From: Streptomyces sp. TG1A-60
Lineage (GTDB): Bacteria > Actinomycetota > Actinomycetes > Streptomycetales > Streptomycetaceae
NCBI RefSeq assembly: GCF_037201975.1
Contig: NZ_CP147520.1
Location: 5,828,001-5,892,000, forward strand
Reading direction: 5' to 3'
DNA: 64,000 nt
Shown piece after piece: positions 46,293 to 62,241 of the stretch; the stretch's first letter is position 1; each line of letters starts with the position of its first letter. Below the pieces are notes generated by a model, which saw only the letters and a list, made by a program, of their open reading frames with translations, made no database searches and had not been told where the DNA came from. A program made the translations under genes and the position numbers.

Positions 46293-47525
<1,233 letters not shown>

Positions 47526-47750
47526 AGCGCCGGTGGCGCTGACGGAAGCGGCCCTGTCGGTCGTCCCACGACCAACAGGGCCTTCCCCCGTCGAGCGGTC
47601 CCCCGGCCGCCCTTTCCCCCGTGAGCGGCAGGTCGGTTGCGCCGCCCTTGTTCCCCCGTGAGCGGCGAGTCCCCCGTGCCCGGCCGCCCTTGTTCCCCCG
47701 TTCGTGCGCGGCCCCCGCACCGCCCACACCACTGATTCCATCGGATCGCG
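47526..47750 (+). terminator. Terminator followed by GCCGCCCTTG-type repeats
   Basis: GGCCCTGT-GGTCGT / ACGACC-ACAGGGCC (47550-47582, one mismatch) is a strong stem 25 bases after the thiolase stop. Directly after it come four related units containing (T)TTCCCCCGT(G/C)-GAGCGG at about 47583, 47615, 47650 and 47690, the last three preceded by GCCGCCCTT. No gene is seen here. Confidence 0.6.
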
Positions 47751-47787
47751 CATTGTTTGGCAGGGGTGGTGCACCTGCCAAACAATG
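47751..47787. promoter_or_regulatory. Perfect 14-bp palindrome upstream of the nSTAND-WD40 gene
   Basis: CATTGTTTGGCAGG (47751-47764), a nine-base centre, and its exact complement CCTGCCAAACAATG (47774-47787). It is AT-richer than its surroundings and ends 87 bases before the proposed start codon. It may be an operator or an mRNA hairpin controlling the large gene. Confidence 0.6.
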
Positions 47788-47874
47788 GCCGGACGCGATC
47801 TCGCCGCTCAGGTGGCCGGATGCGTACGTTGGCTGTCCGAGATGGTGCGGGTGTGGCGGGAGGGGAGCACAGCG

Positions 47875-50800
47875 GTGGCGGGGCGTCGTGAGGTACCGGT
47901 CGATCCGGGGGCCGGACCGGTGCAGCGGTTCGCGTTCGAGTTGCGCAAACTGCGGACCGAGGCGGGCGGCCTCACCTATCGGGCGATGGCCCGGCAGGCC
48001 GGCTACTCGATCACCACCCTGTCCCAGGCCGCGGGAGGCGACCAGCTGCCGACGCTGCCGGTGGCTCTGGCCTTCGTGAGGGCCTGCGGGGGCGACCCGG
48101 CGGAATGGGAGACCAGGTGGCACCAGGCGGCCGAGGAGGCCGCCGCCTTCGACCCGGACGACGACGGGGCGGGCTCGGAGCCGCCGTACCGGGGGCTGTC
48201 CCGGTTCGAGACCGACGACAGCGACCTCTTCTTCGGCCGGGACCGGCTCACCACCGAACTCGTCGGTCTGCTGCGCCGCCGACGGTTCGCGGCGGTCTTC
48301 GGCCCCTCCGGCATCGGCAAGTCCTCGCTCCTGCGCGCCGGACTCATCCCCGTCCTGCGGCGTCCGCAGGAGGCGGGCCCGCCCCTGTCCGGCATCCGCG
48401 TCCTGACGCCCGGCGACCAGCTGGCCCGCACCCGCGAACTGCTCCTGGAGGGCGGCGGCACCGGTGAGGACGGCGGTGACCGGCTCGTGGTCGTCGACCA
48501 GTTCGAGGAGGTCTTCACCCTCTGCCACGACGCGGCCGAACGCGCCCGCTTCATCGACCTGCTGCTGACCGCCCGCGACCCGGAGAGCCGGCTGCGCGTC
48601 CTGCTCGCCGTTCGCGCGGACTTCTACGGCCGGTGCGCCGAGCACCGCGAGCTGGCCGAGGCCCTGGGCGACGCCAACCTGCTGGCCGGGCCGATGAGTC
48701 CGGCGGAGCTGCGCGAGGTCGTCGTCAAGCCGGCCGCGGCGGCCGGGCTGACCGTGGAACGGGCGCTGACGGCCCGGCTGGTCGAGGAGATCTCCGACGC
48801 GCCCGGCGGTCTGCCCCTGCTGTCGCACGTCCTGCTGGAGACCTGGCGCCGCCGCCGGGGCAAAACCCTCACCCTGGCCGGGTACGAGGCGGCCGGCGGC
48901 CTGGACGGGGCCATCGCGAAGACCGCCGAGGACGTCTACAGCCGCTTCACCCCGGGTGAGGCCGCCACGGCCCGCCGGGTGCTGCTGCGGCTGATCTCCC
49001 CCGGCGACGGCACCCCCGACACCCGCCGGCCCGCGGGCCGCGCCGAGCTGGAGACCACCGGCACCGGCCGGGAGGAGGTCGCCCAGGTCCTCGAAGCGCT
49101 CACCCGGGCCCGCCTCCTCACCCTCGACGGCCCCACCGTCGAGCTCGCCCACGAGGCGCTCATCACCGCCTGGCCCCGCCTGCGCGGCTGGATCGAGGAG
49201 GACCGGGAGCGGCTGCGCGCGCACCGGCAGCTCACCGAGGCGGCCCGCGCCTGGGAGGAGCTGGGCCGCGACGAGGGCGCCCTGTACCGGGGGAGCCGGC
49301 TCGTCACGGCCCGGGAGCACTTCGGCGGCCCCGGCCGCACCGACGACCTGACCGACCTGGAAGCCGCCTTCCTCACCGCCGGTGTCACCGCCCTCGAACA
49401 GGAGGAGCGCGCCACGGCCCGCACGACCCGCCGCCTGCGCCTCCTCGTCACCTCCCTGGCCTGCCTCCTCGCCCTCGCCCTGACCGCGACCGCCCTCGCC
49501 TACTGGCAGCGCCAGACAGCCGTGAACGCCCAACGCGAAGGCCTCTCCCGGCAGCTGGCCGCCCAGTCCGCCGCCCTGCTGGACAGCGACACCGACCTCG
49601 CCTCCCTCCTGGCCATCAAGGCGTACCGCACCAGCCCCACCCGCGAGGCCACCCGGAGCCTGTACGCCGCCGCGGCCGTCCCGCTCGAACGGCGGCTGAC
49701 CGGCCACACCGGCACCGTCGCCTCCCTGGCCTACAGCTCCGACGGGAGGACCCTCGCCACCGGCAGCTACGACGGCACGGCCCGGCTGTGGGACACGGCG
49801 AGCGGACGCACCCGGAAGGTGCTCACCGACGGCACCGGCTCCGACGGCACCGGCTCCGACGGTCCCGGCCTCGTGCGCACCGTGGCCTTCGGCCCGGACG
49901 GCGGGACCTTCGCCACCAGCGGCAGCGACGAGGCACGGCTGTGGGACCTGGACACCGGACGCGTCCGGGCCTCGGTCGCCGTCCGCGACCCCGACGACGA
50001 CAACATGGCGGCGGTGGGCTTCGCCGGGGACGGCCGCGCCCTGGCCGTCGCGGAGGGCGGGCAGGTGCTGGACGTGGCCACCGGCCGGGTCGCCACCACC
50101 CTCAAGGGGCCCACCGGTCTGGAGATGGCGGTCGCGTTCAGCCCCGACGGGCGCACCCTCGCCACCAGCACCCGGGACCGCACCGCCCAACTGTGGGACC
50201 TCGACACCGGCAGCGTGCTGGCCAGCGTCAAGAGCAGTACGGGCGTGGTGAGTTCGCTGGCGTTCGACTCCGACGGCAAAACCCTGGCCACCGGCACCGA
50301 GGACGGCACCGTACAGCTGTGGAACGTCGCCGACGGCAAGCGGCGCACCACGCTCACCAGCGCCAGCAGCCGCGTCGAGTCCCTGGCGTTCGCCCCGGAC
50401 GGCAAGACCCTGGCCGCCGGCAGCTACGACAGCACCGTACGCCTGTGGGATCTCGCCACCGGGCGCGTCGAGTCCACCCTCACCGGCCACAACAGCCCCG
50501 TGACGGCGGTGGCGTTCAGCCCCGGCGGCCACGGCCTGGCGACGGGCGACGAGGCCGACAGCTTCGGCGGCGGCGACGTAGGCGTCCGGCTGTGGAACGT
50601 GGCCACGAACCGACCCCGCGCCACGATGGCCGTCCCCGGCGGCTCCCTGGAGTTTGTCGCGTTCGGCCCCGACGGCGACACCATCGTCACCAGCAGTGTC
50701 CGGACGACCGCCGACTTCGGTGACATCACCAGCACGGTACGCCTGTGGGACACGGCCACCCGCCGCAGCCGGGCCACCCTCGACGAGGGGCTGACCCACG

Positions 50801-51654
50801 TGGGGCCGGTCCTCTTCAGCCCCGACGGCAGGACACTCGCCCTCACCGACGAGGTCGAGGCGCAGTTGTGGGACGTCCGCACCCGGCGACCGCGGACCAC
50901 TCTGCCCGGCCGGTTCGTCAACGGGATGGCGTTCAGCCCCGACGGCCGCACGCTGGTGACGGTGGGCGACGGCCTCGTGCTGTGGGACACCGCGACCGTG
51001 CGCCCCCGAGCCGAACTCCCCAAAGCCGAGGAGGGCTCGCAGGTTGCGTTCAGCCCCACGGGCGACGTCTTCGCCACCACCGGAGGCCAGGAGGGGGAGA
51101 TCCGGCTACGGGACGCCGCCACCGGCCGAATCCGGACCAGGCTCGTCGAACCCGCCGGCCGCGCCACGCCGAAGGGAGCCGAGGAGGACCTCGCCCTGAT
51201 GTTCAGGCAGGTGGAGTCGATGGCCTTCAGCCCGGACGGCCGCACCCTCGCCTCCGCCAACGCCGACGGCCGGGTACGGCTCTGGAACACCGGCACGGGA
51301 GAACTCGACGCCACCCTGACCGTGAGCCTCACGGAGGGCCCCGTGCAGGTGGCGTTCAGCCCCGACGGCCGCACCCTCGCCACCGCCGCCGGTGGCACGG
51401 TACGGCTGTGGGACGCCACCACACACTACGCGCGCGCGACGCTCCCGGTCCGAGGCGCCAGGACGCTGGCCTTCAGTCCCGACGGCCGCACCCTCGCCAC
51501 CGGCGGGTACGACGACCGCCTGCGCCTGTGGAACGCGGCCCTGCCCCGCCCCAACCAGGCGATCATTAACCTCTGCCGGGCCCTGCACCGAGACCTCACC
51601 CAGCGGGAGCGGGCCCTGTATCTGCCGGACGAGGAATCAGACCGCGTGTGCTGA
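47875..51654 (+). CDS. HTH-nSTAND NTPase-WD40 repeat membrane protein
   Basis: This 1259-residue protein has four parts. Residues about 18-85 are an XRE-like HTH (FELRKLRTEAGGLTYRAMAR). Residues about 110-500 are an nSTAND P-loop ATPase with Walker A GPSGIGKSSLL (from residue 143) and Walker B LVVVDQFEEVF. A membrane helix follows at about 520-545 (LLVTSLACLLALALTATALA). From about 600 to the end there are some 13-14 WD40 repeats (SPDGRTLAT ... LWD). Similar proteins act as sensors, and some are in defence loci. Start: GTG 47875 behind GGGAGGGGAG; ATG 47842 is an alternative. The next gene is convergent. Confidence 0.88.
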   Translation: MAGRREVPVDPGAGPVQRFAFELRKLRTEAGGLTYRAMARQAGYSITTLSQAAGGDQLPTLPVALAFVRACGGDPAEWETRWHQAAEEAAAFDPDDDGAGSEPPYRGLSRFETDDSDLFFGRDRLTTELVGLLRRRRFAAVFGPSGIGKSSLLRAGLIPVLRRPQEAGPPLSGIRVLTPGDQLARTRELLLEGGGTGEDGGDRLVVVDQFEEVFTLCHDAAERARFIDLLLTARDPESRLRVLLAVRADFYGRCAEHRELAEALGDANLLAGPMSPAELREVVVKPAAAAGLTVERALTARLVEEISDAPGGLPLLSHVLLETWRRRRGKTLTLAGYEAAGGLDGAIAKTAEDVYSRFTPGEAATARRVLLRLISPGDGTPDTRRPAGRAELETTGTGREEVAQVLEALTRARLLTLDGPTVELAHEALITAWPRLRGWIEEDRERLRAHRQLTEAARAWEELGRDEGALYRGSRLVTAREHFGGPGRTDDLTDLEAAFLTAGVTALEQEERATARTTRRLRLLVTSLACLLALALTATALAYWQRQTAVNAQREGLSRQLAAQSAALLDSDTDLASLLAIKAYRTSPTREATRSLYAAAAVPLERRLTGHTGTVASLAYSSDGRTLATGSYDGTARLWDTASGRTRKVLTDGTGSDGTGSDGPGLVRTVAFGPDGGTFATSGSDEARLWDLDTGRVRASVAVRDPDDDNMAAVGFAGDGRALAVAEGGQVLDVATGRVATTLKGPTGLEMAVAFSPDGRTLATSTRDRTAQLWDLDTGSVLASVKSSTGVVSSLAFDSDGKTLATGTEDGTVQLWNVADGKRRTTLTSASSRVESLAFAPDGKTLAAGSYDSTVRLWDLATGRVESTLTGHNSPVTAVAFSPGGHGLATGDEADSFGGGDVGVRLWNVATNRPRATMAVPGGSLEFVAFGPDGDTIVTSSVRTTADFGDITSTVRLWDTATRRSRATLDEGLTHVGPVLFSPDGRTLALTDEVEAQLWDVRTRRPRTTLPGRFVNGMAFSPDGRTLVTVGDGLVLWDTATVRPRAELPKAEEGSQVAFSPTGDVFATTGGQEGEIRLRDAATGRIRTRLVEPAGRATPKGAEEDLALMFRQVESMAFSPDGRTLASANADGRVRLWNTGTGELDATLTVSLTEGPVQVAFSPDGRTLATAAGGTVRLWDATTHYARATLPVRGARTLAFSPDGRTLATGGYDDRLRLWNAALPRPNQAIINLCRALHRDLTQRERALYLPDEESDRVC

Positions 51655-51915
51655 CGCCCAGCCGAGGAAGGCGCTGAACGCGGCGGGGCCGAGGGCGAGT
51701 CGGGGTCCCGCAGGGCTCTTGGAGTCGCGGACGGCGATGGTGGGGCAGGGGGTTTCGGCGACTTCTACGCAGTCGCCGCCCTGGTCGCCGCTGTACGAGG
51801 ACTTACGCCAGGTGAGGGGGCCGACGGGGGCGCACTCGATGCATTCGCCCCCCTGGTCGCTGCTGTAGGACGACTTACGCCACCGGGTCCCCATCGGGAT
51901 CGCGTTGCTCTCCAT
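51637..51915 (-). CDS. Tandem DUF397 protein
   Basis: This 92-residue protein has two DUF397 units back to back: WRKSSYSSDQGGECIECAPV (about 12-31) and WRKSSYSGDQGGDCVEVAET (about 36-55), followed by PTIAVRDSKSPAGPRLALGP. DUF397 proteins (like BldB-neighbour or WhiJ-partner proteins) are developmental partners of XRE/DUF5753 regulators. It overlaps the 3' end of the XRE gene by 41 bases, so expression is coupled. Its 3' end overlaps the WD40 gene's stop by 18 bases on the other strand. Confidence 0.93.
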   Translation of the reverse strand: MESNAIPMGTRWRKSSYSSDQGGECIECAPVGPLTWRKSSYSGDQGGDCVEVAETPCPTIAVRDSKSPAGPRLALGPAAFSAFLGWASAHAV

Positions 51916-52723
51916 AACGCTCCTCCATCACGCGTCGGATCAGCTCCGCCGAATCCCTGAGGGAGAGGGCGGCGGCTTGAAGATGATCGTAACGGAGCGA
52001 GCAGTTCTTGACGGTGTCTGGGTTGGCGGTCGGGTGCCCGCTCCCGTAGCCCTCTGTGTAGACGATGTCCGGGTCTTGCCGGCAGCGGAAGAGCGTGAAT
52101 GAGCCGGTCAGTCCCGCATGTGCCCCGGCGTCGAAGGGCAGGATCTGGATGTTGATCCGGGGATTCTTCTCGAAGGCCAACAGTTTCCGCAGTTGGCCCC
52201 GCATCACTTTCGTGCCGCCGATCTGCTGGTACAGCGCGGCCTCACTGATGACGGCCCACAGGATCGGCGGCTCTTCCTTCTCGAAGATGCGCTGGCGGGC
52301 CAACCGTACGGCGGTCCGGTCGTCGAGACCGGTGTCGTCCAAGGCGCCCAGCACGGCACGGACGTAGTCCTCAGTCTGTAGCAGTCCGTGGATCAACTGC
52401 GTCTGGAACGAGCAGATCTCGGCGGCCCGAACCTCCAGCTCCGCCACCTGCTGGAACCAGGCCGGAAGTTGATGGCGCATCACCAGCACGGCGAGCCGGG
52501 ACAGCAACCCGCCCGTCTCCAACGCCACATCCACCCGCTCGCTGAACTCCAGCGTCGGTACCTTCCTCGCCGTCTCGATCTGCCCGACCAGCGACGCGGT
52601 GTAGCCGAGGATGTCCCCCAGTTGCCTCTGTGTCAGGCTCGCGGCCTCGCGGCAGCGCCGCAACTCGTAGCCGTAGTAGTCCAGTGGTGAGGCGCCGGGA
52701 TCGAGGGTGTGGATCTGGGTCAC
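51875..52723 (-). CDS. XRE family regulator with DUF5753 (WhiJ-like)
   Basis: This 282-residue protein has an HTH_31-type XRE domain at about 15-75 (YYGYELRRCREAASLTQRQL, then GYTASLVGQIETARKVPT). A DUF5753 ligand-like domain spans about 90-275 (ICSFQTQLIHGLLQTEDYVR, then ILPFDAGAHAGLTGSFTLF). This architecture, with a DUF397 partner, is that of WhiJ and many Streptomyces paralogues that repress differentiation or a local target. GTG 52723 is the start. It is divergent from the ATPase at 52816 with a 92-base intergenic promoter region. Confidence 0.93.
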   Translation of the reverse strand: MTQIHTLDPGASPLDYYGYELRRCREAASLTQRQLGDILGYTASLVGQIETARKVPTLEFSERVDVALETGGLLSRLAVLVMRHQLPAWFQQVAELEVRAAEICSFQTQLIHGLLQTEDYVRAVLGALDDTGLDDRTAVRLARQRIFEKEEPPILWAVISEAALYQQIGGTKVMRGQLRKLLAFEKNPRINIQILPFDAGAHAGLTGSFTLFRCRQDPDIVYTEGYGSGHPTANPDTVKNCSLRYDHLQAAALSLRDSAELIRRVMEERYGEQRDPDGDPVA

Positions 52724-52815
52724 GGGCGGTCCCCTCTTTGAGACTTCAACTCACTTTTGCACGCGTTGTGTCTGATCTGTGGCTGACGGTAGTCGCGGTG
52801 GGCCAGTCTTGTGGT

Positions 52816-53235
52816 GTGAACGGACACTTTCCGTCCTTCCTTCTGGGCGCCCTGCCCGCCCAGTACCGGATCTGCCTCACCGTCGGCGAGCACTCCGCGC
52901 ATCACATCCGCCGTATCGTCCGCTCGTATCTGGACGAGTGGGAGATGGCGGAGCTGACCGACGCGGTCGAGCTGGGCGTGACCGAGCTGCTCGCCAACGT
53001 CGTACGGCATGTGCCGGACCGGCGGTGCACCCTGCTGTTGCTGCGCGCGGCGGCCGGGGTGAGGGTGGAGGTCGCGGACGGGTCGGCCCGACTGCCCTCC
53101 CCGCGGGAGGACCTGCCGCCGGACTCCGAAGGGGGGCGCGGGCTGCTGCTGTTGGACGCGGTGGCCCACAAGTGGGGCGTCGGGCCCCGGCTCGCCGGAG
53201 GCAAGACCGTGTGGTTCGAGTGCCGTCGCGGCTGA
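52816..53235 (+). CDS. Anti-sigma-like HATPase (RsbW type)
   Basis: This product of about 139 residues has a GHKL ATPase fold: N-box DAVELGVTELLANVVRHVPD, a VEVADGSARLPSPRE region, and G2 EGGRGLLLLDAVAHKWGVG. It resembles single-domain RsbW-like proteins that usually accompany XRE/DUF397 pairs in Streptomyces. GTG 52816 (VNGHFPSFLLGALPAQYR) gives the usual N-terminus but has no ribosome-binding site; starts 45 bases or more upstream are possible. It ends five bases before the convergent patatin gene. Confidence 0.88.
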   Translation: MNGHFPSFLLGALPAQYRICLTVGEHSAHHIRRIVRSYLDEWEMAELTDAVELGVTELLANVVRHVPDRRCTLLLLRAAAGVRVEVADGSARLPSPREDLPPDSEGGRGLLLLDAVAHKWGVGPRLAGGKTVWFECRRG

Positions 53236-53240
53236 GGCGG

Positions 53241-54488
53241 TCACCGCTCCGGCGGGCGGAGCCGCGTCAGGTCGGCCGGGAGCAGTTCGGGATGGTAGGC
53301 GGCGAGGCCGGCGCCGCCGAGCCACCAGCCCCGGTGGACGAGTGCTCGGCACAGGGACGGCGCGAGACGGTCGAACACCGTCGGGACCAGGGCGAGATCG
53401 CGGCCGTCGTGGGTGCGGTGCTCGGGGAAGGTCGCCCGCCAGCGGTGCAGAACCGGGTCCGCGAGCGGGAAGTCCGTGGACAGCTGGACCAGGAAGCCCC
53501 GGCGGGCGCCGCGCCGGAAGCGTTCGACCATGGCCCGGGTGCGCAGCGCGGTGCTCTGGCGGTAGAGGAGGGAGTTGGCTCTCGCCAGGTCGCGGATCAC
53601 CGGGATGCGGCCGTACATGCCGGGGCGGAGCAGGCCCCCGGCGTTGAGGACGCACAGGAACGTGTGCCGGTAGGTGTCGCTGTCCAGGGCCTCCAGGCCG
53701 GTGTTGTCGTAGGTGCCGCCGTCCAGGAGGGCCGGGCGGTGGGTGGCGCAGGGGAAGGGTCCACGGTCGAGGACCACGGGCGGGAAGGCGCCGGGGACCG
53801 CCGCCGAGGCCGAGACGGCGCGGCTGAGGCGTAGGCCCGTACCGGCCGTGGGGGCGAGACCGATCGTGTAGTCGCCGTACACGTCGCGTTCGAAGGTGAA
53901 GCGGACGCCGGTGGTCAGGTTGGCGGCGTTGACGATCCAGCGGACCTGAGGGTCCAGGTGTTCCAGCTCGGTCTGTCCGAAGAACCAGTCGTCGAGCCGT
54001 CCGGCCAGCAGGTCCGTGCGGGTGGTCGGGCCGAGGGTGCGCCAGACGTCCCGCAGGAGCGTCCGCTTGAGGGAGCGGGCGGAGACCCGGTCGACGAGGG
54101 GCGTGATCACCAGCTCGTCCACCGCCTGCGCGGTGAAGTCCCGCTCGCGCAGGGCCGGCCAGGCGCGGGCCAGGCAGCCGTTGGCTATCGAACCCCCGGA
54201 CACGGAGGAGGAGTAGCGCAGGTGGGGGAGGAGCCCGGTGTCGGCCAGCAGACGGACGAAGCCCAGCGCGGAGAGCGTGGCGCGGAAGCCTCCGCCGGAG
54301 AGGGCGAGGGCGAGGGGGGTGGCCGTGGCGGGTGGTGGTGGGGCCGGGCGGAGGAGGTCGCCGCAGGGGCGGGCGGTCAGGCCGGTGCCGACTGCGGGGG
54401 AGTCGACGGCCCACGGCGACACGCCGTTCGGGGCGGCGGACGGGACGGTGTCCGTGAACGTGTCCGGTGCGTGGCGGGACTTGGTCAT
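53241..54488 (-). CDS. Patatin-like phospholipase (cPLA2/PNPLA type)
   Basis: This 415-residue protein has the oxyanion-hole loop ALSGGGFRATLSALGFVRLL (about 61-80), the nucleophile SSVSGGSIANG (Ser in V-S-G-G) and the catalytic Asp in LLDGGTYDNTGLEALDSD. The first 55 residues are Pro/Thr-rich and disordered; there is no signal peptide or membrane helix, so it acts in the cytoplasm or on the inner membrane face. The start ATG 54488 overlaps the stop of the MBL gene by four bases (ATGA), giving translational coupling. It is third in an operon S8-MBL-patatin. It could degrade membrane lipids when activated. Confidence 0.9.
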   Translation of the reverse strand: MTKSRHAPDTFTDTVPSAAPNGVSPWAVDSPAVGTGLTARPCGDLLRPAPPPPATATPLALALSGGGFRATLSALGFVRLLADTGLLPHLRYSSSVSGGSIANGCLARAWPALRERDFTAQAVDELVITPLVDRVSARSLKRTLLRDVWRTLGPTTRTDLLAGRLDDWFFGQTELEHLDPQVRWIVNAANLTTGVRFTFERDVYGDYTIGLAPTAGTGLRLSRAVSASAAVPGAFPPVVLDRGPFPCATHRPALLDGGTYDNTGLEALDSDTYRHTFLCVLNAGGLLRPGMYGRIPVIRDLARANSLLYRQSTALRTRAMVERFRRGARRGFLVQLSTDFPLADPVLHRWRATFPEHRTHDGRDLALVPTVFDRLAPSLCRALVHRGWWLGGAGLAAYHPELLPADLTRLRPPER

Positions 54489-55684
54489 GGCCGGTCTCCG
54501 ATCGCGATGACGAGTGCCTGGTCGGTGGGGCCTCTGACGTCGACCTCGAAGGCACGGTCCGCGCGCAGTTCCTCCAGCGCCTCCTCGGCGAAGGGGATGT
54601 GGTTGGTGAGGTGGATGACGTACGTGTCGTCGGGTGCGCGGGACTCGACGAGCCGGCGCAGGGTCTCCTCGTCGGGGTGGTGGTGGCGGACGCCGTCGGC
54701 CGAGATGACGTAGTGGTCGGCGTGGATCCACTCGAAGAAGTCGGGTTCCACGTTGCGGTCGCTGCCGTGGTGCGGCAGCTTCAGCAGGTCGAGGTGGAGC
54801 GGGGCGGAGTCGTCGAGCAGGTCGAGGGCGCGCAGGCCGGCCAGGACGTGGTCGCCCCGTGCGTCGCCGGTGAGCAGGGCGGTCCCGTCCTCGTGGCGCA
54901 GGAGCAGCACGATGCTGGAGAGGTTCTGCACCGAACCGTCCGTGTACGCCGCCGAGATGATCTTCGGGTCGCCGCGCCGCCTCGCCTCGCGCCACTTCTT
55001 CTCCAACCGGGCCAGCGCGGCCTCGTCCGGCGCGACGACCGTGACGTCCAGGTCGTGGAGGGTCGCCTCGGCGCCCTCGGTGAGGGGGCCGAGGAAGGGG
55101 GAGTTGCCGTCCAGGCGCAGGGCGCCGGCCGCGTCGCGGAGGTCCCGGCCCTGGTTGTAGCTGGCGGTGACCGCCGAGTCGGAGGCGGCGGCGCGTTCGA
55201 GGAGCGGGTGGACGGAGGCGCTGAGGCCGGGGGCCCGCTGGTCGACCAGTTCCTCCACGGAGTTGAACCACAGGGCGTCGACCGCGTACGGCAGGGCGTC
55301 CCCGTCCTGCTGGGCCCGGCGCATGTCGCGGAAGAGCCGCAGAAGTCCGCCGGCGTGGTCGTCGTCGACGTGGGAGAGGCAGACGACGTCGAGGTGGGGC
55401 GGCGCGAGGCCGTCGCGGCTCTCCTCGTCGGCGAGTCGGCGCAGTCGGCCCCGGAGCGTGGACGTGTAGACGCCGGCCGGGCCGCCGTCGACGAGCATGA
55501 CCCGCTCGCCGGTCGGGCGCCGCTCGTCGTGCGTACGCTGCTCGCCGGGCCGTTCCCGCTCGTCCTGCGTGTCCGGCTCGTCGGGCGGTTCCGGCTCGTC
55601 CTGCGTGTCCTGCTCGTCGTGCGTGTCCCAGCGGACGAGGAAGCAGTCGCCGTGGCGGGCGTCGAGGAAGTCGAAGGTCAACAT
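54485..55684 (-). CDS. ComEC/Rec2-like MBL-fold metallohydrolase
   Basis: This 399-residue cytoplasmic MBL hydrolase resembles the soluble MBL domain of ComEC: it opens MLTFDFLDARHGDCFLVRW, the metal motif is SHVDDDHAGGL (H-x-D-x-D-H variant), and ALLTGDARGDHVLAGL and LKLPHHGSDRN follow. Between strands 1 and 2 lies an inserted repetitive acidic stretch (about 20-61: THDEQDTQDEPEPPDEPDTQ and similar). ComEC-type MBLs can cut DNA or nucleotides, but the target here is unknown. It begins 27 bases after the S8 protease stop and overlaps the patatin start. ATG 55684. Confidence 0.9.
   Translation of the reverse strand: MLTFDFLDARHGDCFLVRWDTHDEQDTQDEPEPPDEPDTQDERERPGEQRTHDERRPTGERVMLVDGGPAGVYTSTLRGRLRRLADEESRDGLAPPHLDVVCLSHVDDDHAGGLLRLFRDMRRAQQDGDALPYAVDALWFNSVEELVDQRAPGLSASVHPLLERAAASDSAVTASYNQGRDLRDAAGALRLDGNSPFLGPLTEGAEATLHDLDVTVVAPDEAALARLEKKWREARRRGDPKIISAAYTDGSVQNLSSIVLLLRHEDGTALLTGDARGDHVLAGLRALDLLDDSAPLHLDLLKLPHHGSDRNVEPDFFEWIHADHYVISADGVRHHHPDEETLRRLVESRAPDDTYVIHLTNHIPFAEEALEELRADRAFEVDVRGPTDQALVIAIGDRP
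55500..55627 (-). repeat. Imperfect coding repeat in the MBL gene
   Basis: Several units related to GCTCGTCCTGCGTGTCC (plus strand) encode the DEQDTQDEPEPPDEPDTQDE-type acidic insert. Likely variable between strains. Confidence 0.55.
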
Positions 55685-55711
55685 GGGGTCTGCCTCGCCG
55701 GGCGGCGGCCG

Positions 55712-57559
55712 TCACACGGACTGCATGGCACGCAGCACGTCGACGAGCCCATGGCCCTGGAAGTCGCGTTCACGGTCGAGGTCGGTCGCCGTCGCGCACA
55801 GGATCTGCTTCACGCGCTCGGGGCGGCCGAGCAACTCGCGGTAGCGGGCCAGCAGCATGGCCGCGGCCCCGCTGACATGTGCCGCCGCCTGGCTGGTGCC
55901 GTGCATGGCGGCGATGCCCTCGCCGGGGATCGGTCCGTCGATGTCCTCCCCCGGCGCCACCAGGTCGGGCTTGCGCCGCCCGTCGCCGGTGGGGCCACGG
56001 CCGGAGAAGTAACTGACGCCGTGGCGGTGCGGATTGCTGCGGTGGGTGGAGCCGACGGTGATGACCGACTCCGCGTTGCCGGGGTCCGAGATGCTGATGT
56101 CGTGGTAGCCGGTGCCCAGGGTGCGCGCGGTCCCGGTGAACCCGGAGTTCCCGGCGGCGGTCACGACCACCACGCCCGACCGTGTCAGCCGGTCGCACTC
56201 GACGCACACCGGTGTCCACCCAGTGGAGTGGGCGGCGACGTCGTGCGGCACCGACAGGCTGATGTTGACCCCGGCGATGACGAACCGGCCGGCCTGCTCG
56301 TTGATGTGCCGGACCGCCTGGAGCGCGGTGACGATGGAGAACTCGTCGCCCTCCCCGTCGTCGTCCAGGACCCGGAAGTCGTACAGCCGGACGCGCGGAC
56401 AGATGCCCCGGAACTCCAGCTCCGGCCACCACCCGCCGATGATCCCGGCGATGTGCGTACCGTGCTGGTCGCCGGGCGGTACGTAGGGGTCCGGCCGTCC
56501 CGGCGAGGGCGGCCCGGGGTCCGACGCGGTCTCGACGGACGGCAGGGCGGCCGACCAGTTCACCAGCCCGTTGATCAGCGCGTCGTCGGGCAGTTTCTCC
56601 CGCACGCACGTGAAGTCGAACGACCGGGCGATACGCGTCTCCAGCCGCCGAGGCGGCGAGACGCCGGTGTCCCACTCGTGGAACGCCGAGTGGCGTGCGT
56701 CGATCCCGCTGTCGACCACCGCCCAGCCGATGGAGGCGCTGTCCACCGAGAACACCTGCTCGGCGGCGTCCGCCTTGATCGTCCGCCGGGACCGTACGAC
56801 CGCGCGGGTCGCCCGGCGGTTCGTCGTCACGGAGACGACGGGGTACTTCTGCCGCCGGTCCACGACACGGCCGACGGGGGTGTGGGGGCCGCGCACCGGG
56901 TGCGTGTCCGGGACGGCGGCGGCCAGCATGCGGACGAGTACGCCGGTCACGTCCCGTTCGCCGGGGTGGGAGTCCGCCACGACCCGGCGCAGCAGGTTCA
57001 GGAACCAGGTCAGCTGACGGCCGCGTTCCTGACGGCGCTGCATGCTGTCGTGGATCTCGCTGGTCGCCGGAGCACGGATGTGCCCGTGCAGAGCCGCCTC
57101 CATCCCCTCCGCGCCGCTCTCCACGGCGAGTTCATGGGCGACCCGCACCACCCCGGCGAGACTCGTCAGCGGCAGCAGGGCCCTGACCAGTTCCTCCAGC
57201 GTCATCCGCACCGCCACGAAGCTCCCGGCCGCGACCGGCCGGCACTCCCGCGTCAGCCGCAGCCGCTGAAGACGTTCGAGGGCCCGCTCGACCCCGTGCT
57301 CCTCACGGACGGAGAGGATCAGGTCCTGCCGGTACGGCGACGGCGGTGGCTCTGAAGGCGATGACGGCGCTTCTGAAGGCGACGGCGGCGGCCGGGACGG
57401 CGTTGACGGCGGCTCTGAAGTCGACGGCGGCGGCCGGTACGGCGACGGCGGCTGCGCGAACGCCAGCCACACGTCGAAGTGCACGGGACAGCCCGTCGCC
57501 CACAACACCGGGACGGGCCCCTCCCCGTAGAACACCGCCAAGAGGTCCGCTCGGTCCAT
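55712..57559 (-). CDS. Subtilisin-like serine protease (S8) with unusual N-terminal module
   Basis: This 615-residue protease has a complete triad: Asp283 (AVVDSGIDARHSAF), His366 (GDQHGTHIAGIIGG) and Ser556 (MHGTSQAAAHVSGAAA). Residues 1-36 (MDRADLLAVFYGEGPVPVLW) are a small hydrophobic-rich module with no signal sequence. Residues about 37-80 are a Pro/Ser repeat linker. Residues about 82-150 could be an inhibitor-I9-like segment, and a helical region (150-260) precedes the protease. Lack of export signal implies a cytoplasmic protease. ATG 57559 follows GGGAGCC. It is first in the operon with the MBL and patatin genes, suggesting it activates or inactivates them. Confidence 0.9.
   Translation of the reverse strand: MDRADLLAVFYGEGPVPVLWATGCPVHFDVWLAFAQPPSPYRPPPSTSEPPSTPSRPPPSPSEAPSSPSEPPPSPYRQDLILSVREEHGVERALERLQRLRLTRECRPVAAGSFVAVRMTLEELVRALLPLTSLAGVVRVAHELAVESGAEGMEAALHGHIRAPATSEIHDSMQRRQERGRQLTWFLNLLRRVVADSHPGERDVTGVLVRMLAAAVPDTHPVRGPHTPVGRVVDRRQKYPVVSVTTNRRATRAVVRSRRTIKADAAEQVFSVDSASIGWAVVDSGIDARHSAFHEWDTGVSPPRRLETRIARSFDFTCVREKLPDDALINGLVNWSAALPSVETASDPGPPSPGRPDPYVPPGDQHGTHIAGIIGGWWPELEFRGICPRVRLYDFRVLDDDGEGDEFSIVTALQAVRHINEQAGRFVIAGVNISLSVPHDVAAHSTGWTPVCVECDRLTRSGVVVVTAAGNSGFTGTARTLGTGYHDISISDPGNAESVITVGSTHRSNPHRHGVSYFSGRGPTGDGRRKPDLVAPGEDIDGPIPGEGIAAMHGTSQAAAHVSGAAAMLLARYRELLGRPERVKQILCATATDLDRERDFQGHGLVDVLRAMQSV
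57319..57455 (-). repeat. Coding repeat encoding the Pro/Ser linker of the S8 protease
   Basis: Repeats of GGCGGC(G/T)GCT/GGCTCTGAAGGCGACGGCGG type (plus strand) encode a run of PSEPPSTP/PSPSEAPSS units. Near-identical neighbouring units suggest length variation. Confidence 0.6.
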
Positions 57560-57687
57560 CAGGGCTCCCGATGCGCGTGGCGTGGGGGGAGGGCTGACTC
57601 CATTCTCCGCCCTGGTCATGAACACCGCATCATGACGCGCGGTACAGGCCGGCGGGGGCCCCGGGGAGGGCCGGGCTCACGGGGCGC

Positions 57688-57725
57688 GAAGGCGGCGGCC
57701 CCGGGGATCGGGGGCCGCCGCCTTC
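57688..57725 (-). terminator. Perfect 15-bp terminator of the transglycosylase gene
   Basis: GAAGGCGGCGGCCCC (57688-57702) and its exact complement 57711-57725 with an eight-base loop, 31 bases past the transglycosylase stop on the minus strand. Confidence 0.85.
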
Positions 57726-57755
57726 AGTCGGGGGGCGCCTGGTAGTGATCGCGGA

Positions 57756-58166
57756 TCAGTACCAGTGGTTGGCCTGCCAGAAGTTCCACGCGCCACAGGG
57801 GCTGCCGTAGCGGTCCTTCATGTAGTCCACGCCCCACTTGATCTGCGTGGCGGCGTTGGTCTTCCAGTCGGAGCCGGCGGAGGCCATCTTCGAGCCGGGG
57901 AGCGCCTGGACCAGGCCGTAGGCGCCGGAGGACGCGTTCCTCGCGTTGACGTCCCAGTCGCTCTCGCGGTCCACGATCTTGGCGAAGCAGCTGTACTGGA
58001 CCGGGTCCCCGACCATCTTCTTCGCGACAGCCTGGGCCTGAGATGCCTCCGACGCGGCCTGGGCGGGCGCGGCGCCGAGCAGCGTACCGGCGGTGGCGGC
58101 GGCCACGGCGGCACCGGCGAGGGCCTTCTTCGGGGAGGCGATGCGGCGCAGGAGGGTGAGGGACAC
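57756..58166 (-). CDS. Secreted lysozyme-like transglycosylase
   Basis: This 136-residue exported protein has a signal peptide ending AQAA at about residue 34. The mature part is an SLT-like domain: KIVDRESDWDVNARNASSGA with the catalytic Glu, YGLVQALPGSKMASAGSDWK, and QIKWGVDYMKDRYGSPCGAW, ending in ANHWY. This short type is common in Streptomyces and cleaves peptidoglycan glycan chains. Start: GTG 58166 with GAGAAGG about nine bases upstream. It is monocistronic, and the 545-base upstream gap is presumably its regulatory leader. Confidence 0.9.
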   Translation of the reverse strand: MSLTLLRRIASPKKALAGAAVAAATAGTLLGAAPAQAASEASQAQAVAKKMVGDPVQYSCFAKIVDRESDWDVNARNASSGAYGLVQALPGSKMASAGSDWKTNAATQIKWGVDYMKDRYGSPCGAWNFWQANHWY

Positions 58167-58711
58167 GGGGAACCTTCTCTTCGGGGACACGGCCGTCGCG
58201 GGCATGCCTTCACCACGCGGTGTGCGGTGGGGGCGTAGGTCGGCGCCGAGGCCCGGGAGGGCACGTCGGCGCCGTGCGACTCGTCCAGAGAAACAGCCGG
58301 AGCAGCCGCCCGCAATGACCCCTTTTGCTAGTGGCCGTCGTACCCGAGGAGGATGCGCCTTCTGTGACGTGGCTCTCAATGCGCAGGTCAGAGCCCGAAT
58401 CGTCGCGCGCATGCCACGTACTTCGATCTACGAGCCCGCTTCGTATGTGACGTGCGTCCTGTGGGGTGGTTCACGCCTCATGCGACAGGCCTCATAACGC
58501 CCTCTGAAGCCGCCGGGCCCGGCTTGTGGCCGGTTCGGGGAGATGGAGACCGCCGGTGCCGATCCGGGTCGGTTGTGCATCGTGACGTTTGCGGGTCGCG
58601 AGTCCGGTGGGAGGCGCGGGCGGGATACTCACGCCGGTCGTCGGCGGGTGTTCACGACGCACACCCCATTGAACTGCGAGAGGCGAGGCATCCGTGTGTC
58701 CTGGCCCGCGC
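58167..58711. promoter_or_regulatory. Long upstream region of the transglycosylase gene
   Basis: There is no gene in these 545 bases. The repeat GTCGGCGCCG occurs at about 58239 and 58266. Streptomyces wall hydrolases often have long structured leaders (some with ydaO c-di-AMP riboswitches), but I could not recognise the ydaO consensus here. The right part is downstream sequence of the response regulator. Confidence 0.35.
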
Positions 58712-59368
58712 TCAGAGGTCGTCCACGTCGACCAGCCCGTCCTGGACGGCGCGGGCCACCAGGCTGGCCTTCGTCCGCGCGGGGCGGCCGACGTTCGCGT
58801 ACTTGATCCGCACGCGGTCCAGATACGAGTTGACCGTCCGTACGGAGATGCCGAGACGCTGCGCGACCAGCTCCTTCGACTCCGACTGGAACCATTCGAT
58901 GAGCACGTTCTCCTCGCGCGCGGAGAGCTGGGGGCGGTCGGCGCGGGCGTTCGTTCCCAGCGCGCCGGCCAGCGCGGGCGGCATGTAGGGCCGCTCATCG
59001 GCTGCTGCCAGCGTCGCCTCGACAAGGTGTTGTCGGCCCTCGCTCTTGGTCAGAAAGGTCGCGGCTCCCAGGTCAAGGCAGCTGAGCGCTGTCTTCTCGT
59101 CATCCCGCATCGAATAGACGACCACCTGCCGCCCGGCGTCGACGAGTCTTCGAAGGCTGCCGAAGGCGGGGGCGCCCTCGCCCAGTTGCAGATCCAGGAT
59201 GACGACATCGGCCGTGCTGCCCGGCGCGGTCCAGGCTTCCCCTACGGAGCCGCCGGCCGCGACCACGGTGATGGGTCGCCGCGATGCGGCGTACCACGCC
59301 TCTACGCCCGCGAGGATGGCGGGATGGTCGTCGACGACGACCACGCTGACTGGTGCGTTGGTGCTCAT
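58712..59368 (-). CDS. NarL/LuxR-family response regulator
   Basis: This 218-residue protein has a receiver domain (VVVVDDHPAILAGVEAWYAA with Asp-Asp, phospho-acceptor Asp in VVILDLQLGEG, Lys in TFLTKSEGRQH) and a C-terminal LuxR HTH (LSAREENVLIEWFQSESKEL, then VAQRLGISVRTVNSYLDRVR). The start ATG 59368 overlaps the kinase stop by four bases (ATGA), so the two are coupled. It would be phosphorylated by the kinase encoded upstream. Its target may include the adjacent secreted proteins. Confidence 0.94.
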   Translation of the reverse strand: MSTNAPVSVVVVDDHPAILAGVEAWYAASRRPITVVAAGGSVGEAWTAPGSTADVVILDLQLGEGAPAFGSLRRLVDAGRQVVVYSMRDDEKTALSCLDLGAATFLTKSEGRQHLVEATLAAADERPYMPPALAGALGTNARADRPQLSAREENVLIEWFQSESKELVAQRLGISVRTVNSYLDRVRIKYANVGRPARTKASLVARAVQDGLVDVDDL

Positions 59369-61779
59369 GTCAGGTCAACTCCGGAGGCCGCCGGTCGTCT
59401 CCAACCAGCCTCCACCCACACACTTCCGCCACGCGTCGTTCTGGCCACGGTCACGTTCGCGGCCGTGGCGCGGCCGCGAGCTTGAGCGGCCTCTGCCGTG
59501 TCATGGCTGTCGGTGCAGTCCTCGCTGATCACGCTCACGCGTACCGCGCGGGGTGTCCACACGACGGTCACCCGCGCGGTCGAGCGGGTACGGCCCAGAA
59601 CCACCGCCACCGGGTCGATCAACTCCCTGCGTACCTCCACAGGCACCTCACCCTGCTGGCCTCGTACGGCCAGGCTCACCGTCACCCCCTGGTGCTCGGC
59701 CACCTCGACGCATGCCCGCAACTCGTTCAGCAGCGGGTCGGAGACGGCGTCGCTCTCCGCGAACAGGCGGCGCATACGGGCGGCTTCCACACCGCACCGC
59801 AGCCTGACCTCCTCGTCGTGCGGGCTCAGCACACCGTGGCCGAGGCCCACGAGCAGCGGCACTGTCGTCATCGTCAGGGCGCGGTAGCGCTCCTTGTGAC
59901 CACGCTGCATGTCCTCGAGGATGCGTTCCCGGGTACGCAGTTCTTCCTCCCGTGCGGCCGCGGTCCCCGCTGCCGGCGCCGTACCGTGGAGCAGGTGCGT
60001 CACCAGTACACCGACGGAGAGCTGGAAGCCGCAGGCGCCTATCGTGGCGATCCCCATGGTGGCCGACTCGGCGGCGGTTGGCGCCCCGGACAAGAACACA
60101 GCGGTCGCGTTGAGCCCCGTATGCGCCCCAAGGAACGCCGCGAACACCCTGACCCGCAGGTCTGCCAGCAGGAACAGCGCATGCCAGCCGACCACTCCGA
60201 ACGCCCAGTCCGCCGGACCCGTCGACTGTTCCGGCGGGATCGTGAACGCGCATACCGCCGAAACGGCCAGCACCGAGCCCAGGCTCCACCCGCGCACCCT
60301 CGGCGGGATCTGCCTGCCGCGCAGCAGATAGGCGCCCCCGGCCACCGCGACGGCGGCGAGGCAGACGAAGGCGGCTGTCTGTGCCCACGCGGGGCGGTAC
60401 ACGTCCTGGTGGACCGTGAGCCGGCGCAGCGAGACGGTGAACTGCCACACCAGGCTGATCAGCAGCACGGCCAGTTGGGCTCCGTAAAGGAGATGCCCGC
60501 GGATGAAGCGGACGGCAGCCGTGTGCTGTGCCTGGGCGCGAGGCGGGCGCGGTACGCCCGTCACGTGCGCTCCGTCCCCTGCCTGTGACGCCCGGGTCCG
60601 GTCGTGCCAGCGCCACCGCACGCGGGTCCCGGTGCCCGGATGTGAGGTGACGGAAGCGGAGCCTCCGACCGCGTGCATCCTGCCGATGATGGAACCGGAG
60701 ATGCCCCGGCGCCGTGCGGGGACGGACTCCGGGTCGAAGCCCCGTCCCGCGTCGGTCAGTTCGACGACGGCGCCGTCCCCCTCTGGCCATGCCCTGAGCT
60801 CCGCTTCCCGCACCCCGGCATGGCGTGCCACATTGGTGACGGCCTCCCGGACCCCGTTGAATATCGCAAGCCCAGGGCCGGACGGAATCGCGAGCGGGCC
60901 GTCGACGTGCGTCTTGAGCCGCACCCTGGCCTGTCCCTCGCCCTCGGGCACACAGCCGAGAAGCGCCGCGAGGTCGACGCTCCCCGTCTCGAATCCGGGC
61001 ACGGCGGACAACGCCTCCAGATCCTGTCTGGCACGCGGAGGCAGCCACGACCAGTCCCGGCCGTCGCCCTGGGAGACCATCAGCAGCGTCGCGCTCGCCG
61101 TATCGTGCAGGGTCGCCAGGTACTCGCGCTCGGTTGCCCTCCGTGTGGCGGCGACCTCGGCCTCCCGGCGCGCCGCCGCCCTGGCCGCGGCCGACCGGTC
61201 AGCCGCCCTGGCCCGCGCCCGAACCATGAGGTAAGCGGCCCTCGACAGGGCCACCTGGACAAACATGCGTACCAGGGGTATCAACTCCGGGCTGTGCCCG
61301 GGCGAGGAGAGGACGTCGCCCAGCACGAAGACGACAGCCCCCAACCCGGCCAGGGCGGCACCGGCCACTGGGCGCGTCGCCCACTCGTACTGGAAGGCGA
61401 TGACGCTGATGCCGACGATCGCCTCCACCATCACATCCGCGCCGTCGCCGCCGAGCACCGGCTGAGACAGCCCCGTCAACACCACCACGGCCGCGTCCAA
61501 CGTCCACAGCAGGGCGAGCGGGAACGGGCGCGGGCGGCGCAGCGAGTAAAGGCGCACACCACAGGCGAGGAGAGCGGGCACCAGCAGAGACATCGCCAGG
61601 GGAATGTCCGCCACGTCCGCCGAGACGACGCCCAGCGCACCGCACAGGCAGACCACGGTGGACCGGAGCCACACCCCGTACCGCTCGAGGGTCAGGATCA
61701 ACAGGCGCTCGCTGGACCTGGGACCGTCCAGCGGCTCAGCGGCTCCGCGCCCGTTCCCCTCGCGCCCCTCGTGCCCCAT
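59365..61779 (-). CDS. Double sensor histidine kinase
   Basis: This protein of about 804 residues has two membrane-kinase halves. The first half has about five hydrophobic segments, a HisKA_3-like box with His225 in YLATLHDTASATLLMVSQ, and a complete HATPase (N-box IFNGVREAVTNVARHAG; G-box DAGRGFDPES; RRGISGSIIGRM). The second half (from about 430) repeats a membrane domain (AVLLISLVWQFTVSLRRLTV onward) and then a kinase-like region with no phospho-acceptor His and a weak ATPase (VVWTPRAVRVSVISEDCTD). The second half may be a sensor or regulatory domain. ATG 61779 has a weak ribosome-binding site. It is followed by the coupled response regulator gene. Confidence 0.85.
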   Translation of the reverse strand: MGHEGREGNGRGAAEPLDGPRSSERLLILTLERYGVWLRSTVVCLCGALGVVSADVADIPLAMSLLVPALLACGVRLYSLRRPRPFPLALLWTLDAAVVVLTGLSQPVLGGDGADVMVEAIVGISVIAFQYEWATRPVAGAALAGLGAVVFVLGDVLSSPGHSPELIPLVRMFVQVALSRAAYLMVRARARAADRSAAARAAARREAEVAATRRATEREYLATLHDTASATLLMVSQGDGRDWSWLPPRARQDLEALSAVPGFETGSVDLAALLGCVPEGEGQARVRLKTHVDGPLAIPSGPGLAIFNGVREAVTNVARHAGVREAELRAWPEGDGAVVELTDAGRGFDPESVPARRRGISGSIIGRMHAVGGSASVTSHPGTGTRVRWRWHDRTRASQAGDGAHVTGVPRPPRAQAQHTAAVRFIRGHLLYGAQLAVLLISLVWQFTVSLRRLTVHQDVYRPAWAQTAAFVCLAAVAVAGGAYLLRGRQIPPRVRGWSLGSVLAVSAVCAFTIPPEQSTGPADWAFGVVGWHALFLLADLRVRVFAAFLGAHTGLNATAVFLSGAPTAAESATMGIATIGACGFQLSVGVLVTHLLHGTAPAAGTAAAREEELRTRERILEDMQRGHKERYRALTMTTVPLLVGLGHGVLSPHDEEVRLRCGVEAARMRRLFAESDAVSDPLLNELRACVEVAEHQGVTVSLAVRGQQGEVPVEVRRELIDPVAVVLGRTRSTARVTVVWTPRAVRVSVISEDCTDSHDTAEAAQARGRATAANVTVARTTRGGSVWVEAGWRRPAASGVDLT

Positions 61780-62241
61780 GGGGTCAAGGGTAGTTGAACG
61801 GCGATCGAGGTAGCCGCTCCTTGTGGGGCAAACAACCGGCACACCCGGTGACCGGGCCGGGCTACTGTGCTCGTCGTACGGGGCTGGGAAGTCCACACTC
61901 AATCACGGGGGAATCTCTATTACGCTGTTCGTTCGCGAATTAGAGTTGCTCGCACAACAAGAACACTCAAAGAAGGCCGCACGCTTGGCGCCCCACACGT
62001 CGGAACCAAGTGGTCCAGCACCTGAGAAGGTGCCGAATTGCGGGGGATCCGGGCCTCGCACCGCTGTTCCCGCCCGCCACTGAAGGTGGCCGGGGCCGGC
62101 GCAAGGGGCCGCACAGGTCCCTCATCAGCGAAACCATGGCCATGTATCGCGCGGAGAGTAGTTCCACGCTGCTCTCACGCGTGCAGGCCTCCACCGGGTT
62201 CACCACCCTTGTCCCCGAGTAATTCTCAACCAGGGAGATTC
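61780..62241 (+). other. Intergenic region with possible decayed or short coding stretches
   Basis: In these 462 bases I see two short plus-strand frames of gene-like composition: about 61919-62083 (translating ITLFVRELELLAQQEHSKKA and onward, with a TTA codon at 61940 and GGGGGAA ahead) and about 62010-62222 (ending MAMYRAESSSTLLSRVQAST). They are in different frames and lack standard starts. They could be parts of one frameshifted gene or a real small gene with an unusual start. The right end holds the promoter for the 62242 gene. Confidence 0.3.

What the first reader, a model, noticed from the sequence alone, without database searches (positions are those of the whole stretch)
53241..57625. 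Candidate new three-gene system: cytoplasmic subtilisin, ComEC-like MBL hydrolase and patatin phospholipase in a tight operon
Seen: three consecutive minus-strand genes with 27-base spacing and a 4-base ATGA overlap. All have intact catalytic motifs (S8 triad Asp283/His366/Ser556; H-x-D-x-D-H MBL; patatin SGGGFRA/VSGGS/DGGTYD), and none has a signal peptide. Known: patatin phospholipases, MBL hydrolases and serine proteases each serve as effectors or activators in bacterial conflict systems (for example CapV in CBASS). Inference: the protease may process the MBL or patatin, which then attack nucleic acid and membrane on activation. I do not know a named system with exactly these three genes.
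Basis: partly seen in the sequence, partly recalled or inferred. Interest (0 to 1): 0.78.

Follow-up and report, generated by a model that had tools for sequence, protein, structure and literature searches.

The report
Subtilisin-triggered nuclease with phospholipase partner
Three neighbouring Streptomyces genes look like a cell self-defence switch in which an internal protease cuts open a locked DNA-cutting enzyme, and possibly a membrane-attacking one too; protease-unlocked nucleases are known, but this protease type and this partner appear to be a new version.

Summary
In detail: a tight minus-strand operon encodes a cytosolic S8 protease, a ComEC/Avs1a-like MBL hydrolase and a patatin with intact catalytic motifs. 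It is a real unit: among 392 Streptomyces genomes, all 5 with the S8 and all 5 with the patatin also have the MBL (6 genomes), and this patatin is the genome's only PF01734 match. The MBL carries two insertions relative to the genome's ComEC, where HamM, Avs1a and CanC carry the 'gates' their partner protease cuts (PMC12799240). S8-linked MBLs form one clade apart from caspase-, trypsin- and ABC-3C-linked ones and reach Thermoleophilia and Alphaproteobacteria. Ten of 18 hand-picked plasmid MBL loci have S8 directly upstream; 4 of those 10 have a phospholipase (patatin or Tle1-like) within two genes; one lies beside Pycsar, one near Shedu. Best reading: a subtilisin-gated pro-nuclease suicide module; S8-MBL is the core, the patatin an add-on. 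New variant of a known kind. A 2023 PADLOC 'subtilase' model already matches this S8, and the supplement of PMC12799240 was not seen, so the pair may have been catalogued.

The parts
55712..57559 (-). S8 (subtilisin) protease, 615 aa from ATG 57559 (alternative GTG 57625); triad D283 (56711-56713), H366 (56462-56464), S556 (55892-55894)
   Evidence: start inferred from relatives
56810..57559 (-). about 250-residue N-terminal part of the S8, conserved in relatives, no Pfam match; candidate regulatory or sensor part (inference)
54485..55684 (-). MBL-fold hydrolase, 399 aa, Avs1a/ComEC-like candidate pro-nuclease; HVDDDH at 55355-55372
55154..55258 (-). MBL insertion 1 ('gate 1', about residues 143-177), ends in A-S-Y176 before the conserved QG; candidate cut site 55157-55159 (prediction)
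54926..55027 (-). MBL insertion 2 ('gate 2', about residues 220-253), contains A-A-Y247; candidate cut site 54944-54946 (prediction)
53241..54488 (-). Patatin-like phospholipase, 415 aa; Ser97 (54198-54200), Asp256 (53721-53723)
54485..54488 (-). ATGA overlap of MBL stop and patatin start, kept in 10 of 10 orthologous loci
57756..58412 (-). Flank: SLT/lysozyme-like gene; an SLT-like match lies directly beside the 46457-47785 gene in 3 of 7 relatives that lack the trio there
47704..51654 (+). Convergent neighbour: HTH-nSTAND1-WD40 protein, in the same variable stretch in L001 and L002 (fragment in L003); link to the trio unproven
46457..47785 (-). Flank: gene with a match in 17 of 21 close genomes, other edge of the variable stretch

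Best explanation
A subtilisin-gated pro-nuclease module with an accessory phospholipase, most likely an abortive-infection (phage or mobile-element) defence. Proposed steps: (1) all three proteins sit in the cytosol, the MBL as an inactive DNase whose active site is covered by two insertions; (2) an infection cue, sensed or relayed through the S8's own N-terminal part, switches on the S8; (3) the S8 cuts gate 1 (near Tyr176) and gate 2 (near Tyr247) and frees the ComEC-like nuclease; (4) the nuclease destroys DNA while the patatin, cut by or co-released with the S8, damages the membrane, so the cell dies or stops growing before progeny are released. Shown here: operon, intact motifs, conserved S8-MBL pairing and order, co-divergence, dual insertions (by alignment), separate clade, variable location, defence neighbours of two relatives. 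Inferred: activity, cleavage, trigger, the patatin's role, defence.
For: Co-occurrence in 392 Streptomyces genomes: close MBL relatives in 6, S8 in 5, all among those 6, patatin in 5, all among those 6. S8 beside MBL in 9 of 10 named contigs, a remnant in the tenth. S8 directly upstream in 10 of 18 hand-picked plasmid MBL loci, and of the distant MBL of G752 from the class-wide sample. MBL matches Avs1a, LmuA, RTasMBL and 6A-MBL models, below the curated cut-offs where a cut-off is given; S8 matches PADLOC 'subtilase' (29 of 29 rows). Two insertions versus own ComEC: first-His-to-Asn distance 149 against 79. One S8-linked side of a branch, 92/100. Mirror correlation r 0.877 for 46 S8-MBL pairs, permuted maximum 0.271. 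Published mechanism for trypsin- and caspase-linked relatives (PMC12799240). Pycsar operon upstream of the pair in Methylorubrum; SduA-annotated gene near the Rhizobium indicum pair. Phospholipases beside S8-MBL or caspase-MBL in different gene orders.
Against: No biochemistry, no phage data, no structure. No recognised sensor in the operon; the S8 N-terminus matches no Pfam family. The hydrophobic residue before QG is also seen in MBLs without S8 (Runella, Shewanella, Priestia), so it may be structural and not a cut site. ISL-100 (G085, L008, L027) keeps MBL and patatin with S8 nearly gone. The patatin family also exists without the pair (G496), and 6 of 10 S8-MBL plasmid loci show no annotated phospholipase. 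Of ten window proteins around the trio only two partial PADLOC matches were found and none is a recognised system. The genome searches scored only the best 3-5 first-look candidates per genome, so absences are not absolute. Streptomyces programmed cell death in development is not excluded.
Confidence: 0.62

Rival explanations
1. The S8-MBL pair alone is the working unit; the patatin is a separately acting or passenger gene that only shares the transcript.
For: G159/L021 has S8-MBL and no patatin match; in L009 the patatin frame is interrupted by a stop beside open S8-MBL; 6 of 10 S8-MBL plasmid loci have no annotated phospholipase nearby.
Against: ATGA coupling kept in 10 of 10 loci; no patatin match without MBL in 392 Streptomyces genomes; patatin distances track the MBL's (r 0.81, 17 contigs); phospholipases recur in other orders.
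Confidence: 0.25
2. A developmental or stress-triggered programmed-cell-death module of Streptomyces mycelium, not aimed at phages.
For: Chromosomal; no transposase or integrase among the flanking genes tested; Streptomyces has developmental cell death (recalled).
Against: Found in few species (6 of 392), variable site, 6 of 10 S8-MBL plasmid relatives on plasmids typed conjugative, one beside Pycsar and one near Shedu.
Confidence: 0.12
3. The neighbouring HTH-nSTAND1-WD40 protein is the sensor and the whole stretch is an unfused AVAST-like system.
For: Adjacent in the window, L001, L002 and as a fragment in L003; Avs1a works with a protease-bearing AVAST protein (PMC12799240).
Against: No match to it in L004-L010, L021, L026 or L027; convergent strand; an N-terminal HTH, an architecture that I recall as common in Streptomyces.
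Confidence: 0.06
4. The three enzymes are metabolic (protein, nucleotide or lipid turnover) and merely co-transcribed.
For: Each superfamily has housekeeping members (recalled).
Against: MBL matches defence models and carries the insertions; sparse distribution; S8-MBL order conserved across phyla.
Confidence: 0.05

Closest known systems
Gated nuclease-protease pairs of Hachiman (HamMAB) and AVAST type 1 (Avs1a/Avs1b), Tuck et al. 2025
   Same: ComEC-like MBL with two insertions, adjacent protease gene, protease-nuclease co-divergence
   Different: Protease there is trypsin-like and fused to HamA or within Avs1b; here a free S8 with its own N-terminal part, protease gene upstream of the MBL, plus a patatin; no helicase or STAND in the operon
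Canu (CanABC), caspase-nuclease system, Tuck et al. 2025
   Same: Unfused protease gene upstream of the MBL gene; canu-like loci L022, L024, L025 and L087 also carry a Tle1-like/DUF2235 gene
   Different: Caspase and CanB instead of S8; MBLs fall outside the S8-linked side of the tree
MBL-containing Lamassu (LmuA), ABC-three-component and DRT (RTasMBL) systems
   Same: MBL matches the LmuA and RTasMBL models
   Different: No SMC/ABC ATPase or reverse transcriptase among operon and flanking genes tested
PADLOC 'subtilase' model PDLC03014 (2023)
   Same: Matches this S8 at 4.8e-44 and all 29 aligned relatives
   Different: Which candidate system the model belongs to is not given by the tool and I do not know it; it may already cover S8 genes of this kind
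IetAS
   Same: S8 protease in a phage-defence context; weak match to IetS (7.9e-9)
   Different: No IetA AAA ATPase beside it
CapV-type patatin effectors of CBASS
   Same: Patatin phospholipase as a possible membrane-attacking effector
   Different: No CD-NTase seen beside it; this patatin matches no PADLOC model at E 0.1
NucA-trypsin(-S8) conflict systems, Kaur et al. 2020 (PMC7159879)
   Same: Protease plus nuclease, occasionally an S8 domain
   Different: HNH-type NucA nuclease, fused proteins; passages read only

Membership tests
Gated MBL pro-nuclease with partner protease (Tuck et al. 2025) | ComEC-like MBL core with intact HxDxDH, D and HH motifs | tested here: met
Gated MBL pro-nuclease with partner protease (Tuck et al. 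2025) | Two insertions relative to ComEC at the gating positions | tested here: met
   by sequence alignment only; whether they cover the active site could not be tested, structure prediction was off
Gated MBL pro-nuclease with partner protease (Tuck et al. 2025) | Conserved adjacent protease that co-diverges with the MBL | tested here: met
Gated MBL pro-nuclease with partner protease (Tuck et al. 2025) | Protease cuts the gates and unleashes DNase activity | not testable with these tools
   candidate cut sites only
Gated MBL pro-nuclease with partner protease (Tuck et al. 2025) | Protects against phage | not testable with these tools
   no assay
AVAST type 1 | Avs1a above the NCBIfam cut-off (420 bits) with Avs1b protease | tested here: not met
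   129.8 bits; partner is a free S8
Canu | Caspase CanA and CanB beside the MBL | tested here: not met
   operon and flanking proteins; tree
Lamassu with MBL-type LmuA | SMC-type LmuB beside LmuA | tested here: not met
   LmuA model matches (5e-51) but the flanking genes tested show no SMC
CBASS with patatin effector | CD-NTase in the operon | tested here: not met
   none among operon and flanking genes tested
IetAS | IetA AAA ATPase beside the S8 | tested here: not met
   none among operon and flanking genes tested

The most novel reading that the evidence does not exclude
One subtilisin simultaneously fires two executioners, a gated DNase and a phospholipase, with its own N-terminal part as the infection sensor and no ATPase, STAND or helicase: a minimal caspase-like cascade built on a subtilisin. 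Beyond this operon, phospholipases (patatin, Tle1-like) would be a recurrent second arm of protease-gated nuclease immunity.
Probability: 0.3. Interest if true: 0.8.

Novelty: new variant of a known kind. Interest (0 to 1): 0.62.

Why it matters
Protease-activated DNases are a freshly described immune principle with two tested protease types. A third, unrelated protease class (subtilisin) on the same gated nuclease would suggest that the nuclease is a plug-in for many endopeptidases. The recurring phospholipase would be a candidate for the 'other proteolytically activated enzyme classes' that Tuck et al. consider possible. The predicted cut sites make this directly testable.

Tried and rejected
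Phage records held no MBL relative at 1e-10. The one viral-contig hit (L095, 28% identity) is a trypsin/ABC-3C-linked MBL, not S8. The patatin has no relative on plasmids at 1e-40 or in the PDB at 0.01. The S8 N-terminus has no Pfam match; a propeptide (I9-like) reading was considered and no search supported it. No Rfam match in 44000-64000; one tRNA-Val at 25598-25670, far away. Class-wide samples of 394 genomes: MBL profile in 3 (own; G752, a distant MBL that turned out to have S8 directly upstream; G013, a match inside a 1092-aa frame whose surroundings beyond the short locus were not viewed), patatin profile in 2 (own; G496, standing alone). S2 of PMC12799240 ('other diverse families' of proteases) may list S8.
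Full report
OBSERVATION. The window lies at 5,828,001-5,892,000 of a single-contig 7.83-Mb genome whose relatives are Streptomyces. The three minus-strand genes exist as described. Pfam confirms Peptidase_S8, Lactamase_B and Patatin. None shows a membrane helix or signal peptide in a simple hydropathy scan.

IS IT A UNIT? In 392 Streptomyces genomes sampled, close MBL relatives (63-100% identity over the matched part) were found in 6 (the own genome, G296, G281, G114, G085, G159), plus 4 distant ones at 33-37%. The S8 family (E <= 1e-80) was found in 5, all among those 6. The patatin family (E <= 1e-60) was found in 5, all among those 6. These searches scored only the best 3-4 first-look candidates per genome, so absences are not absolute. 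The exceptions are informative: G159 has S8-MBL and no patatin match, and G085 has MBL and patatin with only a 26-residue S8 remnant. The patatin is open in 8, interrupted by an in-frame stop in L009, and cut off by the contig end in L005. The MBL-patatin ATGA overlap is kept in 10 of 10. This patatin is the only PF01734 match in the genome, while S8 gives 13 matches, so the patatin's place is unlikely to be chance.

WHERE IT SITS. The stretch between the SLT-like gene (57756-58412) and the gene at 46457-47785 is variable. Three trio-bearing relatives with the same flanks (L001, L002, L003) carry the trio there, with an nSTAND1-WD40 gene (a fragment in L003). Of the 16 other close genomes with a hit to the flank gene I fetched 7, those on long contigs. 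None of the 7 stretches has the trio, and in 3 (L074, L076, L077) an SLT-like match lies directly beside the flank gene, in two of them only a partial match. Other trios sit elsewhere: behind enoyl-CoA hydratase-like and 2OG-oxygenase genes in L009, L010 and L026 (the oxygenase gene looks damaged in L008), or behind a pirin gene in L004 (Pfam was run on the oxygenase of L010 and the pirin of L004 only, the other names are my reading of the sequence). Hence an accessory, moving module.

WHAT THE MBL IS. It matches Avs1a (1e-37), 6A-MBL and ComEC models, all under their curated cut-offs, and the PADLOC models LmuA, RTasMBL and Avs1a. Aligned to the genome's own ComEC (itself under the ComEC model's cut-off), it has two extra stretches, between W139-F-N and Q178-G and between P219 and N254-L-S-S. 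The distance from the first His of HxDxDH (HxHxDH in this ComEC) to that Asn is 149 residues, against 79 in ComEC, 147-157 in four caspase-linked MBLs, 145 and 159 in two of unknown partner, 148 and 155 in two ABC-3C-linked, 135 in a serine-protease-linked one, 196 in an annotated Avs1a, and 128-210 in the 42 MBLs I class as S8-linked. Tuck et al. (PMC12799240) showed for HamM that the partner protease cuts after I118 and I218, in two insertions predicted to cover the active site, and that this turns on DNase activity. For EpiAvs1a, changes at the two conserved isoleucines (I134, I234) reduced defence, both together abolished it, and a cut next to I134 was seen on infection. For CanC the sites were predicted, and changing either ablated defence. 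I read the abstract, the Results in full, the Discussion and the legends. The annotated Cupriavidus Avs1a has Ile at 134 and 235, Ile134 lying four residues before the same QG; the EpiAvs1a sequence itself was not seen. In the S8-linked MBLs the residue two before Q178 is hydrophobic in 42 of 42 (Y20, I11, V8, F2, L1), and the residue matching Tyr247 is Y, F, L, I or V in 40 of 42. These are my predicted cut sites; that subtilisins favour large hydrophobic residues there is recalled. Against this: Runella, Shewanella and Priestia MBLs without S8 also have I or V before QG, so the position may be structural.

WHAT 'S8-LINKED' RESTS ON. Ten of the 42 are plasmid loci viewed directly. Of the 32 rows of alignment A1, the window's is viewed directly and 17 share their contig length with an S8 hit; for the other 14 the link is assumed from family membership. 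In the tree the 29 S8-linked rows are 9 viewed plasmid loci (Paroceanicella fell out through my script), the window, 10 with contig-length support and 9 assumed.

PROTEASE CLASS AND CLADE. In that 40-row tree the 29 rows form one side of a branch (92/100; 90% of 200 bootstrap trees), apart from caspase, trypsin, ABC-3C and Avs1a rows. The bootstrap had not fully settled and ComEC is a very long branch. S8 and MBL distances correlate (r 0.877, 46 pairs, permuted maximum 0.271); shared species history contributes to this. The S8 itself matches a PADLOC model named 'subtilase' (4.8e-44; 29 of 29 aligned relatives). The tool does not say which system that model serves and I do not know it, so some prior cataloguing is likely.

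BEYOND STREPTOMYCES. A plasmid search with the Miltoncostaea MBL found 73 records. I viewed 18 MBL loci (four, the rest), chosen by hand for variety. Ten have S8 directly upstream: Miltoncostaea, Methylorubrum, Paroceanicella, and seven Rhizobium/Sinorhizobium plasmids (in L083 the S8 is not in the gene table and was seen by tblastn, and in L049 it is split over two frames). Two have a caspase, two ABC-3C genes, one Avs1b, one another serine protease, and two no identified protease. Six of the ten S8-linked plasmids are typed conjugative. The distant MBL of G752 (class sample) also has S8 directly upstream. Phospholipase within two genes of the S8-MBL pair: 4 of 10 (patatin before S8 in L048; patatin two genes before S8 in L080; a patatin with a marginal Pfam score after MBL in L083; DUF2235/Tle1-like after MBL in L046). 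Canu-like loci L022, L024, L025 and L087 carry the Tle1-like gene too. The window's, the Sinorhizobium and the Paroceanicella patatins are 28-39% alike and lie on different sides of the pair, so I infer separate recruitment. No background rate for phospholipases near other plasmid genes was measured. In Rhodococcus an S8 relative is followed by an alpha/beta hydrolase-like gene (match under the Pfam cut-off) and no MBL. Defence neighbours: a Pycsar operon upstream in Methylorubrum (PycC 2e-220, E2, PycTIR), an SduA-annotated gene near the R. indicum pair, SIR2- and NERD-kinase-annotated genes near the R. phaseoli pair.

MECHANISM. Best reading: infection -> S8 activation -> gate cutting -> DNase release, with the phospholipase as a second arm, leading to death or arrest of the infected cell. 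Shown by others for relatives: gate cutting and DNase release. Inferred here: that S8 does the same, what triggers it, and that the patatin is part of the response. The S8 N-terminal ~250 residues, conserved but without Pfam match, are the natural place for sensing, since no ATPase, STAND or helicase is in the operon.

COMPARISON AND NOVELTY. It works like the Hachiman/AVAST/canu nuclease-protease pairs but is a member of none of the named systems: AVAST, canu, Lamassu, CBASS and IetAS each miss a defining partner (see membership table). The main text of PMC12799240 mentions neither subtilisin nor patatin but says that nuclease homologues also occur with 'other diverse families' of proteases (fig. 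S2 not seen). Hence new variant of a known kind. Kaur et al. 2020 (PMC7159879, passages only) mention an S8 domain with a NucA nuclease, a different enzyme.

LIMITS. No structure, no assay, one protein-database search per gene with listings cut at 120 rows, plasmid loci hand-picked. The name 'ATPk' used in my scripts for 52720-53235 is mine; that 171-aa frame has no Pfam match.

Noticed in passing
window 47704-51654 (+): HTH-nSTAND1-WD40 protein (nSTAND1 7.3e-127) convergent to the trio and shared with L001, L002 and (fragment) L003; possibly a defence gene of its own or a sensor.
   Followed up: partly
L022, L024, L025, L086, L087: Canu-like caspase-middle gene-MBL operons in Streptomyces and Bradyrhizobium; those in L022, L024, L025 and L087 carry a Tle1-like (DUF2235) phospholipase gene beside the caspase and L086 an alpha/beta-fold hydrolase gene, hinting that a lipase arm is general.
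   Followed up: partly
L093 5503-8601: Rhodococcus plasmid: S8 relative followed by an alpha/beta hydrolase-like gene with no MBL, a possible protease-lipase pair without nuclease.
   Followed up: no
L087 7090-10782: An S8 peptidase plus AAA ATPase pair (IetAS-like by annotation) lies directly beside a canu-like operon on a Bradyrhizobium plasmid.
   Followed up: no
L023 1-2766 and 6347-7432: Streptomyces MBL of unclear protease partner with a patatin-like frame of at least 921 aa about 3.6 kb upstream.
   Followed up: no
window 55502-55628 and 57328-57452: In-frame tandem repeats (18/36/54 and 21/42/63 bases) make an acidic insert in the MBL and a proline-rich insert in the S8 N-terminal part; they are absent or shorter in most aligned relatives.
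   Followed up: partly
L008 / L027 (G085 C104) and L009: Decaying copies: S8 nearly gone with MBL and patatin open; and a patatin interrupted by an in-frame stop with S8-MBL open.
   Followed up: partly
L089 3398-5983: 861-aa protein without a Pfam match directly upstream of a gated-type MBL on a Cupriavidus plasmid; possible further partner type.
   Followed up: no
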